Position numbers and translations under genes: made by a program. A stretch of 64,000 bases of DNA from Photorhabdus heterorhabditis (lineage in GTDB: Bacteria; Pseudomonadota; Gammaproteobacteria; Enterobacterales; Enterobacteriaceae): the NCBI RefSeq assembly GCF_018448905.1, contig NZ_RCWA01000003.1:62001-126000 (forward strand), in the 5' to 3' direction. Below the pieces are notes generated by a model. It did not search any database and had not been told where the DNA came from. It saw only the letters and a program-made list of their open reading frames with translations. Positions 1,881 through 58,213 of the stretch are shown in pieces; position 1 is the first letter of the stretch, and each line of letters starts with the position of its first letter.

Positions 1881-2150
1881 TTAGTTCAGACAAGGTGAAT
1901 CCGAGCTGTCCACCAATTCCCGCAAATATTGAGCTAACTGACTGACAGTTTTCTCACCGGTAGCAGCTTCTACAGTTAGGTTTTCCAGCATATTGCCGTT
2001 GTCTCGAATACGAACACCATTACGCCATAGAAAAGTCGTAGTCACGAGAAATGCAGTCCGCTTATTACCGTCATTAAAGATATGACCACGAGCAATCGAC
2101 ACCCAGTAAGGGTGTGTCAATTCCCACTCTGTACCGCTGGTTGCTAGCGC
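1881..2150 (-). pseudogene. truncated second copy of doc (Fic-fold toxin)
   Basis: From the YW-x-x-IARG segment onward it is nearly identical in protein to the intact Doc at 2228-2614, including the Fic motif HIFNDGNKR and the tail QLAQ-x-LRELVDSS. The N-terminal half (helices before the Fic motif) is missing: upstream the frame reads about ten more codons and then meets a TAG at 2151-2153. No ATG with a ribosome site precedes it. It looks like a decayed tandem duplicate; the Fic motif itself is intact. Confidence 0.75.
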
Positions 2151-2227: not shown

Positions 2228-2614
2228 TTAATTCCTTGAACTGTCCACCAGTTCACGCAAACACTGCGCCAACTGGTCTACCGTTTTTTCCCCAGTAGCT
2301 GCTTCAACCGTCAGATTTTCCAGCGTATTGTCAGTATCGTGAATACGGATGCCATTACGCCAAAGAAAGGTCATAGTAACGAAAAAAGCAGTGCGTTTAT
2401 TGCCATCGTGAAAGATATGACCGCGGGCGATAGCGATCCAGTAAGTAGCCGCCAGTTCAAACAGATCAGTGACGCCTTCGTAGTGAACACGATTCTGCAC
2501 CCGATAAATCAACGCCTGTGCTCTGCCGGGGTCAGATAGACCTGCCACACCAGGAAAGCGTTGTAAAATTCGATCGTGGAAGGCAATGACTTCCTGTGCG
2601 CTGACCCAAATCAT
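2228..2614 (-). CDS. doc: Doc toxin (Fic-fold kinase of EF-Tu)
   Basis: 128 residues, the usual Doc length. The motif HIFHDGNKR (residues about 66-74 of the chain) is the Doc/Fic active site; Doc enzymes phosphorylate EF-Tu and stop translation. The start overlaps the stop of the upstream antitoxin by four bases (2611-2614), the standard coupled arrangement of phd-doc. A truncated duplicate follows immediately downstream. Family call is secure from the motif, length and partner gene. Confidence 0.9.
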   Translation of the reverse strand: MIWVSAQEVIAFHDRILQRFPGVAGLSDPGRAQALIYRVQNRVHYEGVTDLFELAATYWIAIARGHIFHDGNKRTAFFVTMTFLWRNGIRIHDTDNTLENLTVEAATGEKTVDQLAQCLRELVDSSRN

Positions 2615-2832
2615 CGGTCAGTCAGCGCCTTGATCGTGTGTTCATGCCGTTGCATGATGGCATCAAATTCCGCATCCAGTTTGGAATTTTGATAGGCCTC
2701 GAATTCGGCTTTGCTGATCAGCACGGCGGCACTGCCGTCACGACGGGTGATTTCAACAGGCTCACCATTTAACGCGGTATCCAGTACGGTGGAAATATTG
2801 GCTCTGGCCTGTGTGGTGGTATAGGTTTGCAT
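2611..2832 (-). CDS. phd: Phd/YefM-family antitoxin
   Basis: 73 residues starting MQTYTTTQARANISTVLD, a typical Phd/YefM N-terminal DNA-binding fold, followed by PVEITRRDGSAAVLIS and a C-terminal tail that would bind Doc. The ATG at 2832 has AGGAAA a few bases upstream; a longer reading to 2928 has no ribosome site and would run through the operator. It neutralises Doc and represses its own promoter in characterised systems. Confidence 0.88.
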   Translation of the reverse strand: MQTYTTTQARANISTVLDTALNGEPVEITRRDGSAAVLISKAEFEAYQNSKLDAEFDAIMQRHEHTIKALTDR

Positions 2833-2848
2833 GGTTATTTCCTGATAT

Positions 2849-2878
2849 GTACGAGTATAGTGTACGTTTAAATTGTAC
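2849..2878 (-). promoter_or_regulatory. probable Phd operator: three GTAC repeats at 13-base spacing
   Basis: GTAC occurs at 2849, 2862 and 2875, exactly 13 bases apart, just upstream of the antitoxin start. The second and third are arms of a near-palindrome with an AT-rich centre. Regularly spaced short palindromes in front of phd-type genes are the usual site for cooperative repressor binding. The role is inferred from position. Confidence 0.5.
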
Positions 2879-3065
2879 ATTACCCTAGGGCTAATGTGTA
2901 AATACATTTCATCGGCATATAAAATCACCCATAATCACTTACGTAACATTAGACAATCCGCTTTTCGCCGACAATAACGTCCTGCAAGAAGAATATGGGG
3001 GCGGGGTAACTGTATGATTGATCGTGGTCTGCGGGCGGTTATGAACTAAATGAATGGCGGACTAA

Positions 3066-3093
3066 ATTTAACATAATATACATTAGGCGCACT
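3066..3093 (-). other. dif: dif-like chromosome dimer resolution site (XerC/XerD)
   Basis: Read on the minus strand this 28-base site has XerC arm AGTGCGCCTAA, centre TGTATA and XerD arm TTATGTTAAAT. The XerD arm and centre equal E. coli dif as I remember it; the XerC arm differs at two positions. It lies in a 358-base gap between phd and hicB that otherwise holds only the phd operator and a terminator. Nearby Ter/tus and matS sites support a terminus location. XerCD recombination here would resolve chromosome dimers under FtsK control. Confidence 0.88.
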
Positions 3094-3130
3094 ATGGTTA
3101 TAACACCAATATAGTCATATCACTTTGGTA

Positions 3131-3190: not shown

Positions 3191-3598
3191 TTACGAGTGT
3201 TTCGACAGCTCACGTCGAGCCAATTCAGCCAAGAATCCGCTGCGGCTATGATACTCACGATGTGAGTTCACGTATTCATCAATTCTACCCAACAAAAATT
3301 GAGGCATAGTAATGTTTAGCTTGATGGCTTTTCCATCGTATTTAGTTAAATCCATATCAACATAAGCCCAACTACCGCCAGTGCAATCTTCATTGCTTAG
3401 ATGGTCAGCAACAGTTCTGGCTTGTACTGGAGCCTCACCCTTTTCGCTCATGTATTCAAAATAAGTATCTAATGCGTTTTGAGCATCGCTAATAGCGTCG
3501 TCAATGGTATCACCAGCAAAGTAACATCCGATCACGTCTGGCACAAAACCAGAAAACGATCCGTCGTCAGCCTGATGTAAATAAATAGGATATCTCAT
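3191..3598 (-). CDS. hicB: HicB-family antitoxin, apparently without HicA
   Basis: 135 residues. The N-terminal part MRYPIYLHQADDGSFSGFVPDVIGCYFAGDT with DAISDAQNAL is the HicB partial RNase-H-like fold; the C-terminal part KAIKLNITMPQFLLGRIDEYV-x(n)-SRSGFLAELARREL is a ribbon-helix-helix DNA-binding domain. HicA normally sits directly before or after hicB as a ~60-residue ORF, but no such ORF is visible on this strand in 3599-3884 or before 3191. It may be a solitary regulator or the survivor of a broken pair. Confidence 0.8.
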   Translation of the reverse strand: MRYPIYLHQADDGSFSGFVPDVIGCYFAGDTIDDAISDAQNALDTYFEYMSEKGEAPVQARTVADHLSNEDCTGGSWAYVDMDLTKYDGKAIKLNITMPQFLLGRIDEYVNSHREYHSRSGFLAELARRELSKHS

Positions 3599-6824: not shown

Positions 6825-7703
6825 TTATTTTTTCCGACTAAATCTTGCCATACCCGGTTTTTTAGGATTAGGAACAAAGCCCGGATTTCCAGCGCCCGGT
6901 TTCCAACTCACTTTCATTTTTGCACCAACCTTGTTGTAAAACTTTTCTAATTCATAAATATCATTGGCTATTATCCATTTTCCTTTACAGATGATAGCAA
7001 CTGGAAACTCTCCAGGTTCGGCAACAACTTTGACAATCCCACCTCGTTTTTTGACTTCTTCTCTCTCTTTGTCCATAGCAAAAGCAGGATAACTTACCTG
7101 AGGACCATGTCTGATAACATTATGTTCTATATCTTCAAATGGCCGGTTTAAATCAGCGTGGGCAATAAATCGGTTAATCAGATCGATTATTTTCTTTTCT
7201 TCTAATGAAGCAGATGGAACTGAATGTGGTTGCGTCGTGAAACTAATCATGTCATGCATATCATAGTCACCAGTGAAAGGCAGCGCGGCCCAGTTTTCTT
7301 TTCCTTTTAAGGAAGAGAGACTTGCCTCGAGATTGTTTAAATCTATTGGATAAATTCTTCTGTCACCACTGCTCATATATATACCTTTAAGATGACCACT
7401 TTTTTTATCCCAGTGACCGACATAACCCTCAATAGATGCCTTCCGCACCTTATTTATGACATCTGAAGCTTCATCTCCAAAATATGCTTTTCTAATTGAA
7501 CCAGGTTTAATTGTTTTTTCAAGAATATCGTGTCCTTTCGCGGCAGCGCCTTTACTAAGCGCTTTCAGAGTTGGTTCACCTGCCGCCCGAAAACTGACAG
7601 CAAAATTACCCATTTTAGACGCTTTTTCAATCGCCTTCATGTGCCCTTCCCAAATAAATTCTCTCTTAACTTGCTGGCGAACACCAAAGTCATTCTCGAA
7701 CAT
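6825..7703 (-). CDS. toxin-like protein, possible EF/CyaA/ExoY-type nucleotidyl cyclase
   Basis: 292 residues, no signal peptide or membrane segment, very basic tail (KKPGMARFSRKK). Three segments recall the adenylate-cyclase toxin family: FAVSFRAAGEPTLKALSKGAAAKGHD near residues 34-59, compared with the FRPVNxxxxxLI..G.xxKxxxxKGKSS start; TGDYDMHD (Asp146, Asp148), compared with the metal-binding YDLF region; and IRHGPQVSYP (His199). However, the family Asn six residues after this His is Tyr here, and spacings are shorter than in EF or CyaA. The assignment is therefore tentative and the protein may be inactive or different. ATG 7703 has AAAGGA upstream. A relic of a second copy lies at 38867-38935. 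Confidence 0.45.
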   Translation of the reverse strand: MFENDFGVRQQVKREFIWEGHMKAIEKASKMGNFAVSFRAAGEPTLKALSKGAAAKGHDILEKTIKPGSIRKAYFGDEASDVINKVRKASIEGYVGHWDKKSGHLKGIYMSSGDRRIYPIDLNNLEASLSSLKGKENWAALPFTGDYDMHDMISFTTQPHSVPSASLEEKKIIDLINRFIAHADLNRPFEDIEHNVIRHGPQVSYPAFAMDKEREEVKKRGGIVKVVAEPGEFPVAIICKGKWIIANDIYELEKFYNKVGAKMKVSWKPGAGNPGFVPNPKKPGMARFSRKK

Positions 7704-16652: not shown

Positions 16653-17921
16653 GTGAGCACTATCCATAGCATTAGTGAAAACCGGGTTTCTGGTAAGAAT
16701 CTTGTCCAAAATATTCAAAATGAGAAAAATTATATTCAGAAAAAAGACGCTTTGTACATTAGAGTGACGTTGTCACTCTTTACTGTAGGATTAGCCTCGT
16801 TTGCCTTGCTCTATTTTGTTCAGCCGATTCTACCGATGTTATCAGAGGACTTTGGTGTTTCTCCGGCAACCAGCAGTTTATCTTTATCACTTTCGACTGG
16901 CATGCTGGCTTTGGGATTATTGATAACGGGTCCTTTGTCTGATGCCATTGGTCGTAAAAATATCATGGTAACTGCATTGTCTGCCGCTGCAATTTTCACT
17001 TTACTAAGTGCATTTATGACCAGTTGGTCTGGAATTCTAATTGTACGCATTCTGGTTGGTTTGTCTCTCAGCGGTGTAGCTGCTGTTGCTATGACTTATC
17101 TTAGTGAGGAAATTCATCCAAATTTTGTTGCTTTATCAATGGGGCTTTATATCAGCGGTAATTCTATTGGTGGAATGAGTGGACGATTAATATCGGGTAT
17201 TATCACTGATTATTTCTCATGGCGTATTTCTATCATCGTATTAGGTGCATTTGCATTGATTGCTGCCATTATGTTTTGTCGTATGTTACCTCAATCGCGT
17301 CATTTTCGTCCAAGCTCCTTAAAACCAAAATCTTTATTGATAAACCTGAAGTTACACTTTCGTGATAAAGGATTGCCATTATTATTTTCTGAGGCATTTT
17401 TGCTGATGGGTGGCTTTATTACGGTGTTTAATTATATAGGTTATCGTTTATTAGACTCACCTTATCATTTCAGTCAGTCAACTGTAGGTATATTATCCAT
17501 TGTATATCTTGCAGGTACATACAGTGCATCTAAAGCAGGCGCATTAACCCGTAAATATGGACTTGGAAAAGTTTTGATAGCTACGATTAGTATGATGCTG
17601 GTTGGTATTCTTATTACTATGCTATCGTCTGTAATGATGATTATGATTGGCATAACAGTATTAACCTCCGGTTTCTTTGCAGCACATGCTGTCGCTAGCA
17701 GTTGGGTTGGACGTCGTGCTCGCCGGGCTAAAGCCCAAGCTTCTTCTCTTTATCTCTTTTGCTACTATGCTGGCTCAAGTGTAGCAGGTACCCTTGGTGG
17801 TATATTCTGGCTTCAATTAGGTTGGAATGGGGTTGTGTTATTTATTACCATTCTTACCCTTTTAGCCTTATTTTTGGGGTTTAAACTCATTAAGTTACCT
17901 GATGCAAAAATAACATATTAG
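16653..17921 (+). CDS. ynfM: MFS transporter YnfM
   Basis: 422 residues with about 12 membrane segments and the MFS loop motif GPLSDAIGRKNIM after segment 2. It is in the YnfM group (drug/metabolite efflux), conserved beside ynfL. The start is GTG 16653 with TAAGGA upstream; the overlapping ATG at 16651 reads ATGTGA and stops at once. The coding region contains a perfect matS site. Confidence 0.92.
   Translation: MSTIHSISENRVSGKNLVQNIQNEKNYIQKKDALYIRVTLSLFTVGLASFALLYFVQPILPMLSEDFGVSPATSSLSLSLSTGMLALGLLITGPLSDAIGRKNIMVTALSAAAIFTLLSAFMTSWSGILIVRILVGLSLSGVAAVAMTYLSEEIHPNFVALSMGLYISGNSIGGMSGRLISGIITDYFSWRISIIVLGAFALIAAIMFCRMLPQSRHFRPSSLKPKSLLINLKLHFRDKGLPLLFSEAFLLMGGFITVFNYIGYRLLDSPYHFSQSTVGILSIVYLAGTYSASKAGALTRKYGLGKVLIATISMMLVGILITMLSSVMMIMIGITVLTSGFFAAHAVASSWVGRRARRAKAQASSLYLFCYYAGSSVAGTLGGIFWLQLGWNGVVLFITILTLLALFLGFKLIKLPDAKITY
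16764..16776. promoter_or_regulatory. matS site (MatP binding)
   Basis: GTGACGTTGTCAC fits the MatP consensus GTGAC-R-N-Y-GTCAC at every position. With ten fixed and two two-fold bases such a match is expected about once in four million positions of random sequence. It lies inside ynfM. MatP organises the Ter macrodomain. Confidence 0.85.
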
Positions 17922-44324: not shown

Positions 44325-46569
44325 TTTGTTAAATTTACTCCATAAAAACAAAATATGGGATTTCGACGGTGGAATTCATCCACCGGAAATGAAGCTGCAA
44401 TCCAGTCAAACACCATTGCGCATTGCACCACTACCGGAAGAGTTAATTATCCCATTACAACAACATTTGGGAACGGAAGGCGAATTACTGGTTAAAGCAG
44501 GTGATAAGGTGCAGAAAGGCCAACCTCTGACATTTGGCTCTGGTCGTACTGTACCGGTTCATTCATCGACTTCCGGTACAATCATTGCCATTGAACCTTG
44601 CATTACAGCGCATCCATCTGGGTTGAAAGAATTGTGTGTTCGTCTACGCCCAGATGGTGAAGATCAATGGTGTGAACGCATTCAGACACCTGATTATCAA
44701 TCACTTGATGCAAACACTATTCTTAATCGAATCCATCAGGCAGGTATCGCGGGTTTAGGTGGCGCGGGTTTTCCCACCGCCGCCAAACTTCAAAGTGGCC
44801 GTTCTGGTATTAAGACGCTGATTATTAACGCCGCAGAATGCGAACCTTATATTACCGCTGATGACCGCCTTATGCAGGAACACTCAAACGAATTAATTGA
44901 AGGAATTCGTATTCTGGAACATCTGCTTAAACCTAAGCAAATACTGATTGGTATCGAAGATAATAAACCAGAAGCAATAAGAGCACTGAAAACCGCACTA
45001 AAAGGCGATAAAACTATCATCGTCCGGGTTATCCCGACCAAATACCCCTCCGGTGGTGCAAAACAACTGACCAAAATCCTGACAGGTGAAGAAGTGCCAT
45101 CCGGTGGCCGTTCCTCAGCTATTGGTGTTCTGATGCAGAACGTCGGCACAGTGGTTGCTATCAAAAGAACCATTATTGATGGCGAACCCTTAATTCAACG
45201 TGTGGTGACCGTCACTGGTGACGCTGTAACCTCCCCCGGTAATTTCTGGGCGCGAATCGGTACTCCAGTTCAATTTCTTCTCCAGTTAGCCGGTTTTGAA
45301 CCACAATCAGAACAGATGGTGATTATGGGTGGCCCGCTAATGGGATTCACTCTGCCCGATCTGAATGTACCTGTTGTCAAAATCAGTAACTGTATTCTGG
45401 CACCCTCTCATCAAGAAATGGATGCAAATACTGCGGAAGAAGCATGTATCCGTTGTGGATTATGTGTGGAGGCTTGTCCCGCTAGTTTATTGCCACAACA
45501 ACTTTACTGGTTCAGCCGTGGTCAAGAACATGAAAAAGCCCGCGATCACAACTTGTTCGACTGTATTGAATGTGGTGCCTGTGCTTATGTCTGTCCCAGC
45601 AACATTCCTCTGGTGCAATACTATCGCCAGGAAAAAGCGGAAATTAAGGCATTAGATCAGGAAAACCGTCGTTCAGCAGAAGCCAAAATTCGTTTTGAAG
45701 TTAAACAAGCTCGTATGGAACGAGAAAAGCAGGCTCGTGAGGAAAGACACAAAAAAGCGGCTGTTCAGATTGATAATCAAGATAAAAATACAGTACAAGC
45801 GGCACTCTCCCGAGCAAGGGAAAAACAGGCTGACACAGGCAAAATTGTTTCCATAGAACCGGGACAAGTACCGGATAATTCAGCAGCAATAGCGGCTCGT
45901 CAGGCAAGAAAAGAGCAGATTCGGGTTCGCCAAGCGGAAAAACAAGCGGCTGAACATATTCATACTGCTACATCGGTACAAACAGAATCAGAAGATCCAC
46001 GCAAAGCCGCATTAGCCGCAGCCATTGCCAGAGCTAAGGCAAAGAAAGCTGCTCAGAGCCAAGAGGTGACAACGTCACCTGAAATAGCAGAACCAGAATC
46101 TATAACCAGTGAAAAGCCAGATCCCCGTAAAGATGCAGTGGCTGCCGCAATCGCTCGCGTTAAAGCGAAGAAAACCGCGCAAACGCAACAAGTTACTGAA
46201 ACCCAAACCGAAGTTCCACCTGCATCCGTAGAAGAAATCGATCCTCGCAAAGCAGCAGTGGCTGCCGCTATTGCCCGCGTTAAAGCTAAAAAAACCGCGC
46301 AAACGCAGCAAGTTACTGAAACCCAAACCGAGGCTCCACCTGCACCCGCAGAAGAAATCGATCCACGTAAAGCAGCAGTGGCTGCTGCTATTGCCCGCGT
46401 CAAAGCTAAAAAAACCGCGCAAACGCAGCAAGTTACTGAAACCCAAACCGAGGCTCCACCTGCACCCGCAGAAGAAATCGATCCACGCAAAGCTGCGGTG
46501 GCTGCCGCTATTGCCCGAGTTAAGGCTAAGAAAGCAGCTCAGGAACAGCAGAAAATTTCAACAGAATAG
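44317..46569 (+). CDS. rsxC: RsxC, NADH-binding iron-sulfur subunit with repeat tail
   Basis: 750 residues from ATG 44317, overlapping the rsxB stop by eight bases. N-terminal NADH/FMN part ([17 protein letters not shown]) and two 4Fe-4S motifs [12 protein letters not shown] and [12 protein letters not shown]. After residue ~450 there is a charged, Ala/Lys/Gln-rich tail with five repeats of about 40 residues starting DPRKAA. Such tails are normal in enterobacterial RsxC but vary in copy number. Confidence 0.95.
45990..46545 (+). repeat. five tandem 40-residue repeats in rsxC
   Basis: Units open with DPRKAAxAAAIARxKAKK. The last three spacings are exactly 120 bases and adjoining copies are almost identical in DNA, while the first unit is diverged and 126 bases long. 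This points to recent amplification at the 3' side. Long open frames on the opposite strand here are shadows of the repeat. Confidence 0.9.
46066..46078. promoter_or_regulatory. matS site (MatP binding) inside rsxC
   Basis: GTGACAACGTCAC is a perfect match to GTGAC-R-N-Y-GTCAC. It lies in the first, diverged repeat unit linker of the rsxC tail. Confidence 0.85.
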
Positions 46570-57543: not shown

Positions 57544-58213
57544 ACGCGGTTTATCCAGACTCACCCTTTCCGCCTTCAAAGACCGGGAAGGAAAAGTCTC
57601 CGTGGGTAGCTTACAGGCCATGTATAACCCCGATACGATCCAGCTTGATTACCAAACCCGTTACCAACAGGATGAAAGTGTTAATCGTACCAGCCAAAGC
57701 AGCCGTTATGTATTATCTCAGCCTGCTGGATTATCCTTGGTCCTGCTGTTTGATGCCTCAATGCCCGGCAATAACACACCCATAGAAACACAGCTTGCAA
57801 CCCTGAAATCCCTGTGTGCGGTGGATGCCAGCACCAAAGTACCCCACTTCCTTAAAATTAAATGGGGTAAAATGCGCTGGGAAAACAAAGGTTATTTCGC
57901 TTGCCGAGCCAGTAGTCTGGCCGTCAACTATACTTTGTTTGACCGGGATGCCACACCACTGCGCGCCAATGCGACCTTATCCCTGGTGGCAGACGAGAGT
58001 TTTGTTATTCAAGCTACCGAGCGACAGTTAAAATCGCCTCCGGCTACTGCGGTTAGCGTAACCGATATGCTTTCCCTACCCTTGATCGCCTTAGGTGCTG
58101 GAGCTTCGCTGGCCGGTGGTATCGATTATCTCTCGCTGGCCTGGCAAAACAGTCTGGATAATCTTGATGACTTTACCCCCGGACAAACCCTACAAGCTCG
58201 GGGGGATACATGA
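57530..58213 (+). CDS. pvc7: Pvc7, baseplate protein (LysM/gp53-like)
   Basis: 227 residues from ATG 57530, preceded by [50 protein letters not shown] is the family start. The C-terminus [15 protein letters not shown] holds only a stub of a LysM-like end. It joins tube and baseplate. Overlaps pvc8 by four bases. Confidence 0.9.

What the first reader, a model, noticed from the sequence alone, without database searches (positions are those of the whole stretch)
3066..3093. dif site with an intact XerD arm and an altered XerC arm
The 28-base site equals E. coli dif in the centre and XerD arm and differs at two XerC-arm positions. It marks the exact place where replicated chromosomes are resolved, and it lies among toxin-antitoxin genes.
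Basis: partly seen in the sequence, partly recalled or inferred. Interest (0 to 1): 0.7.

Follow-up and report, generated by a model that had tools for sequence, protein, structure and literature searches.

The report
Chromosome dimer-resolution site of a Photorhabdus
This 28-base stretch is the bacterium's dif site, where XerC and XerD separate joined daughter chromosomes; it is an ordinary site whose one variable half differs in a way typical of Photorhabdus, and in relatives filamentous phages insert there.

Summary
Window 3066-3093 (minus strand) reads AGTGCGCCTAA-TGTATA-TTATGTTAAAT: E. coli dif with two changes, both in the XerC arm. It is the only place within 3 mismatches in the assembly. 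On its contig 9 of 9 KOPS point at it, GC skew changes sign around it, and 3 of the genome's 6 exact matS places lie on that contig. It is the chromosomal dif (0.95).

The altered XerC arm is a genus trait. Each of 13 Photorhabdus genomes has one dif with an unchanged XerD arm. C at position 8 occurs in 10 of 13, and in a 295-genome family sample only in the 3 Photorhabdus in it.

Relatives show filamentous phages at this dif. IMG/VR prophage L164 shares 332 identical bases with the empty site of G007, up to base 15 of dif. G011 keeps a 1.6-kb phage relic with different XerC arms at its two ends. XerC-type integration would swap the arm; that is possible but unproven, and drift is at least as likely.

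In this genome no phage was found at dif. Beside it lie an orphan hicB and phd-doc genes.

The parts
3066..3093 (-). dif, 28 bp: AGTGCGCCTAATGTATATTATGTTAAAT
   Evidence: KOPS, skew and matS
3083..3093 (-). XerC arm AGTGCGCCTAA (positions 1 and 8 differ from E. coli dif)
3077..3082 (-). central region TGTATA (same as E. coli)
3066..3076 (-). XerD arm TTATGTTAAAT (same in all 13 Photorhabdus genomes searched)
3094..3126 (-). 33-bp flank next to the XerC arm, 30 of 33 as in G002; its last 17 bases recur by eye in G001, G004 and G008 behind different upstream sequence, and versions of it lie on both sides of the phage relic in G011
   Evidence: a pattern of it met 3 contigs in genome contigs, all Photorhabdus
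3191..3598 (-). hicB antitoxin gene without a complete hicA: likeness to G011, which has a hicA reading frame there, stops at about 3680
   Evidence: (PF15919, 7.5e-35); hicA read by eye
2611..2928 (-). phd-type antitoxin gene (ORF as listed; the real start may be further in)
   Evidence: PF02604, 9.6e-13
2228..2614 (-). doc-type (Fic/Doc) toxin gene
   Evidence: PF02661, 9.1e-14
1881..2120 (-). second, truncated doc copy (76% identical in DNA over 208 bp to the first)
   Evidence: PF02661, 5.5e-7
7644..7651 (-). nearest KOPS to the right of dif, pointing at it (C3:69644)
58074..58081 (-). KOPS pointing at dif (C3:120074)
16764..16776 (.). matS palindrome (C3:78764)
46066..46078 (.). matS palindrome (C3:108066)

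Best explanation
The site is the chromosomal dif of this Photorhabdus. As in E. coli (established knowledge, not shown here), XerC and XerD bind the two arms, FtsK guided by KOPS reaches the site in dividing cells that carry a chromosome dimer, activates XerD, and two strand exchanges split the dimer. The XerC arm has the CGCCTAA form common in Photorhabdus; the XerD arm and centre are unchanged. This genome has XerC and a match taken as XerD, so the variant arm is expected to work (inferred). In relatives the same site takes up filamentous phages by exchange beside the XerC arm (shown by sequence junctions for L164 and the G011 relic, not in this window). Such an exchange leaves the host arm at the far junction and the phage arm on the restored dif, which could have produced part of the XerC-arm variety (inferred).
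For: Only match in the assembly. 9 of 9 KOPS and both skew signs oriented on it. 3 of 6 matS places on its contig, which is 4.3% of the assembly. One match in each of 13 of 13 Photorhabdus genomes with up to 1 mismatch to a pattern free at positions 1, 2 and 8, XerD arm identical in all 13. XerC over the curated cut-off in 13 of 13, and a second uninterrupted match (open frame 304-315 aa, 307-311 bits), taken as XerD, in 13 of 13. C at position 8 in 10 of 13 Photorhabdus, against 3 of 295 in the family sample, all 3 Photorhabdus. Phage at dif: L164 identical to G007 over 332 of 332 bases through XerC arm plus TGTA, then DNA whose proteins match phage replication, virion, pI/Zot-type and pIV-type families (9 of the 19 ORFs scanned). 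G011: a relic with a piece of a G2P-type replication protein (PF05144, 3.7e-17), 1,598 bases from the arm GGTGCGCCTAA-TGTACG to the arm GGTTCGCCTAA-TGTATA-TTATGTTAAAT.
Against: No experiment. Draft assembly (226 contigs), so a second dif in a gap cannot be excluded. The skew maximum lies 18 kb from the site. Only 9 KOPS on the contig. FtsK and MatP were not searched. For the arm-swap part: in IMG/VR the CGCC arm with a full dif, and with this phage junction, gave 0 and 0 hits; all 11 contigs with the junction have CGCATAA; the right junction of L164 is not in the record; a Phage_CRI search found the phage in 1 of 13 Photorhabdus genomes, G011.
Confidence: 0.95

Rival explanations
1. The XerC-arm changes are plain drift by point mutation in the tolerant half of dif, with no phage involved; phages merely use the site.
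For: XerC arms vary more than XerD arms throughout proteobacteria (PMC2731167, PMC3025954, passages). Position 4 also varies in other genera of the family, and position 1 in the table printed in PMC2731167. XerC proteins of the 13 Photorhabdus are 86-97% identical and no column separates the A8 from the C8 genomes, so no matching change in XerC is needed. G012's arm is one change away from the outer arm of its neighbour on the tree, G011.
Against: Position 8 is in the part of the arm that is usually palindromic (8-11, PMC2731167 passage), and no other genus in the sample shows C there with an otherwise exact pattern. On the gyrB/parE/xerC/xerD tree the A8 genomes G012 and G005+G007 are apart, so position 8 changed at least twice.
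Confidence: 0.55
2. XerC arms are swapped by XerC-type filamentous phages, so that the arm in this window came with a past phage whose body has been lost; the 33-bp flank is a scar.
For: G011: the arms at the two ends of the relic differ, and both are preceded by versions of the flank (26 and 27 of 33 as in G002). L165: two junctions carry GATGCGCATAA and GGTGCGCATAA. The last 17 bases of the flank are kept behind different upstream sequences.
Against: In this genome no PF05144 match, and the 5 other loose dif-like places within 20 kb are what shuffling gives (6 with dif itself; mean 6.15 in 40 shuffles). The flank is also on the host side of L164 and in G007, so it may be host DNA. In the 47 IMG/VR contigs, the 8 full dif sites have GGTGCGCATAA (4), GCTTCGCATAA (3) or GGTTCGCATAA (1): none has C at 8. 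A stretch shared by G008 and G011 that I first took for a phage end looks like the start of a transposase gene (recalled resemblance; no hit).
Confidence: 0.3
3. The site is a relic or mobile-element copy and the working dif lies elsewhere.
For: Draft assembly; flanks on both sides differ between species, as at insertion hot spots.
Against: Only match in the assembly, one per genome in 13 of 13, KOPS converge on it.
Confidence: 0.03

Closest known systems
Chromosomal dif of E. coli / Enterobacterales (XerC-XerD, FtsK)
   Same: 28 bp, 11-6-11 layout, identical centre and XerD arm, one match in the assembly, at the meeting point of KOPS
   Different: A at position 1 and C at position 8 of the XerC arm; C8 met only in Photorhabdus in the sample
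UPphi and related Lineavirus-type filamentous phages that integrate at dif (PMC7307601, passages read); phage I2-2 as relative
   Same: L164 and the G011 relic: junction after about the first 15 bases of dif, ORFs on the opposite strand just inside that end, replication protein like I2-2 (67% over 70 aa for G011)
   Different: Host is Photorhabdus, a name absent from that paper's main text; G011 is a broken remnant; nothing of it was found in the window's genome
XerC-dependent integrating elements (IMEX), VGJphi/CTXphi class (PMC4246890, PMC5357621, passages)
   Same: Likeness to dif limited to the XerC arm and the adjoining central bases; junctions as expected for exchange beside the XerC arm
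   Different: No recombination tested; attP of the Photorhabdus phages was not seen whole

Membership tests
Chromosomal dif (XerCD) | 28-bp site with XerC arm, 6-bp centre and XerD arm close to consensus | tested here: met
   2 mismatches of 28 to E. coli dif
Chromosomal dif (XerCD) | single copy per chromosome | tested here: met
   1 in this assembly with up to 3 mismatches, 1 in each of 13 of 13 genomes; draft assemblies among them
Chromosomal dif (XerCD) | at the convergence of KOPS and near the GC-skew switch | tested here: met
   9 of 9 KOPS point at it; skew +0.090 / -0.061; skew maximum 18 kb off
Chromosomal dif (XerCD) | inside the matS-rich terminus domain | tested here: met
   3 of 6 exact matS places on this contig; the reversed control pattern occurred at 1 place in the genome. 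All three lie on one side of dif
Chromosomal dif (XerCD) | host encodes XerC and XerD | tested here: met
   XerC over cut-off at C8; uninterrupted 307-aa match at C2 taken as XerD. FtsK not searched
Chromosomal dif (XerCD) | FtsK-dependent recombination at the site | not testable with these tools
   needs an experiment
XerC-dependent phage integrated at dif, in this genome | phage genes between dif and a second XerC-arm site | tested here: not met
   no PF05144 match in G000; loose dif-like places within 20 kb no more than in shuffles
XerC-dependent phage integrated at dif, in L164 and G011 | empty and occupied sites identical up to the XerC arm plus the first central bases | tested here: met
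   L164 against G007 332 of 332; G011 outer junction against G000 95.9% over 606 columns, ending at base 15 of dif
XerC-dependent phage integrated at dif, in L164 and G011 | right junction has phage arm plus host centre and XerD arm | tested here: inconclusive
   fits in G011; the right end of L164 is not in the record

The most novel reading that the evidence does not exclude
In Photorhabdus the XerC arm of dif is a phage-supplied, exchangeable half-site: each XerC-type filamentous phage overwrites it on entry, so the arm's history follows phages rather than the host, and the C at position 8 spread through the genus that way.
Probability: 0.25. Interest if true: 0.5.

Novelty: new member of a known kind. 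Interest (0 to 1): 0.25.

Why it matters
It fixes the terminus coordinate for this genome and shows that a core position of the XerC arm can change in most of a genus. If arms are swapped by phages, that would be a simple further reason why XerC arms vary more than XerD arms, testable by comparing the arms at the two ends of integrated phages.

Tried and rejected
1. That the break of homology at the XerD-arm end marks XerD-type integration: XerD-side flanks differ between species, but no remnant att site was recognised, so it is left open. The 227-bp XerD-side flank of the window is single-copy in the genome and of unknown origin.

2. That a stretch shared by G008 and G011 upstream of dif is a phage right end: dropped after reading it as the likely start of a transposase gene (recalled resemblance; no hit in Pfam or NCBIfam). 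Its pattern met 0 contigs in IMG/VR.

3. Co-evolution of XerC with the arm: no XerC column separates the 3 A8 from the 10 C8 genomes.

4. An att site in phage I2-2: best match 13 of 15, inside gene III, not convincing.

5. The peptides were read by hand from the flanks and may contain errors; no hit, no weight.

6. Of the 6 IMG/VR contigs, L080-L083 carry another dif-like site (TGTTCGCATAATGTATA) and look by recalled resemblance like Acinetobacter filamentous phages. L084 and L085 hold CGCC half-sites followed by TGTA, but their ORFs look by eye like those of larger phages or other DNA, not filamentous phages; taken as chance.

Full report
OBSERVATION. The window holds AGTGCGCCTAA TGTATA TTATGTTAAAT on the minus strand at 3066-3093. 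It is the only match to E. coli dif with up to 3 mismatches in the window (0 of 100 shuffles had one) and in the 5.05-Mb, 226-contig assembly. The two mismatches are positions 1 and 8, both in the XerC arm.

IS IT THE WORKING dif? On its 218,707-bp contig all 9 KOPS (GGGNAGGG) point at it, 4 from the left and 5 from the right, with the flip between C3:58098 and C3:69644 and dif at C3:65066. GC skew is +0.090 left and -0.061 right. The cumulative maximum over the first 200 kb is at C3:83418, 18 kb off, on a plateau. Three of the six exact matS places of the genome are on this contig, all to the right of dif (the reversed control pattern occurred at one place). XerC is over the curated cut-off, and a second 307-aa match, taken as XerD, is uninterrupted. 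FtsK was not searched. The patterns are recalled.

THE GENUS. Each of the 13 genomes of the genus has one match (up to 1 mismatch). The genus is Photorhabdus: three contigs found by a flank pattern are named so and have the lengths of contigs of G001, G002 and G008. XerD arms are identical in 13 of 13. The centre is TGTATA in 12 of 13 (G004: TTTATA). XerC arms: AGTGCGCCTAA in 6 (G000, G002, G003, G004, G006, G009), GGTGCGCATAA in 2 (G005, G012), and one each of AGTACGCCTAA (G001), AGTTCGCCTAA (G008), GGTTCGCCTAA (G011), AGTGCGTCTAA (G010) and AGTACGCATAA (G007). C at position 8 is thus in 10 of 13.

In a family sample of 295 genomes, 192 matched a loose dif pattern with up to 1 mismatch. Most of the others are small genomes of about 0.2-2.4 Mb, but some are of 3 Mb or more. 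The exact C8 pattern was met in 3 of 295, the 3 Photorhabdus in the sample. The two calls differ in mismatch limit, and the match list was cut.

That XerC arms vary more than XerD arms is known (PMC2731167, PMC3025954, passages read). PMC2731167 also says that positions 8-11 are often part of the palindrome, so a change at 8 in most of a genus is a modest oddity. Neither main text mentions Photorhabdus. The supplementary table of PMC3025954, which may list it, could not be opened.

On a gyrB+parE+xerC+xerD tree G012 (A8) groups with G011 and G006 (C8), and G005 with G007 (both A8), so position 8 changed at least twice. XerC is 86-97% identical among the 13, and no column separates A8 from C8 genomes.

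THE NEIGHBOURHOOD. Left of dif in the window lie phd and doc and a second truncated doc; right of it lies hicB without a complete hicA. Sequence like the window's phd region starts 96-138 bases from the first base of dif in G004, G009 and G010, and 1,090 bases away in G007. Flanks on both sides differ between species, often breaking at the ends of dif. No call bears on a link between the toxin-antitoxin genes and dif function. Rfam and tRNA scans of the window gave nothing.

PHAGES AT dif IN THE GENUS. In G011, a copy of the window's XerC-side flank ends in GGTGCGCCTAA TGTACG (95.9% over 606 columns). 1,598 bases on, arm to arm, comes GGTTCGCCTAA TGTATA TTATGTTAAAT. Between them are pieces of a filamentous-phage replication protein in two frames (PF05144; 67% identical to I2-2 over 70 aa) and ORFs on the opposite strand. 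In E. coli, 1,004 of 5,426 genomes have some match to the relic, and 13 hold at least 80% of it.

IMG/VR contig L164 begins with 332 bases identical to G007 through AGTACGCATAA TGTA, then continues into other DNA. Of its 19 ORFs 9 were scanned; they include matches to phage replication, virion structural, pI/Zot-type and pIV families. That is an occupied site facing an empty one; that its host is a Photorhabdus is inferred from the flank.

PMC7307601 (passages read) describes UPphi phages, relatives of I2-2 and IKe, that integrate at dif with repeats that typically match its first fifteen bases; the junctions here look the same. Its main text does not mention Photorhabdus. A library search for Photorhabdus with inovirus gave 0 papers. 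With 'filamentous phage' it gave 18, of which 12 were listed and none by title is about phages of Photorhabdus. PF05144 was met in 1 of 13 Photorhabdus genomes.

MECHANISM AND ITS LIMITS. Exchange beside the XerC arm (known for VGJphi and CTXphi; PMC4246890 and PMC5357621, passages) should leave the host arm at the far junction and the phage arm on the restored dif; this consequence is my inference. G011's unequal arms fit, as do L165's unequal arms at two junctions. Against it as the source of CGCC: searches for that arm with a full dif and with this phage junction gave 0 and 0 in IMG/VR, all 11 contigs with the junction have CGCATAA, and the 8 full dif sites in the 47 contigs have A at 8. 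G012's arm is one change from G011's outer arm, so no swap is needed there. For the window's own arm drift is the likelier source.

VERDICT. An ordinary, well-supported chromosomal dif with a XerC arm typical of the genus. The occupied/empty pair for a filamentous phage at a Photorhabdus dif is a useful by-product.

Noticed in passing
L164:1-9279 (IMG/VR 2827157499_000009) against the dif of G007: Filamentous prophage of Lineavirus type in what looks like a Photorhabdus dif; the host flank is identical to the empty site of G007 over 332 bases; the right junction is missing from the record.
   Followed up: partly
G000:C16:392-1282, C68:6720-7604, C91:1126-2010, and places in relatives: XerC-like recombinases with open frames of about 340-480 aa (one of 622), several copies in several of these genomes, in G007 and G012 partly spaced 7-9 kb apart; perhaps a mobile element family with its own XerC-like enzyme.
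   Followed up: no
G120, G199, G221, G226, G277, G281: Second dif-like sites with centre TCTATC on another contig of these genomes, perhaps dif sites of large plasmids.
   Followed up: no
window 2839-3065: About 200 bases between phd and dif, single-copy in the genome and without a match in the dif regions of the 12 relatives; origin unknown.
   Followed up: partly
G004 dif (L005): Centre TTTATA instead of TGTATA, the only centre change among the 13 genomes.
   Followed up: no
G008, about 110-1500 bases from dif on the XerC side: An open reading frame (463 aa) that looks like part of a polyketide synthase (recalled resemblance) runs up to near the dif flank.
   Followed up: no
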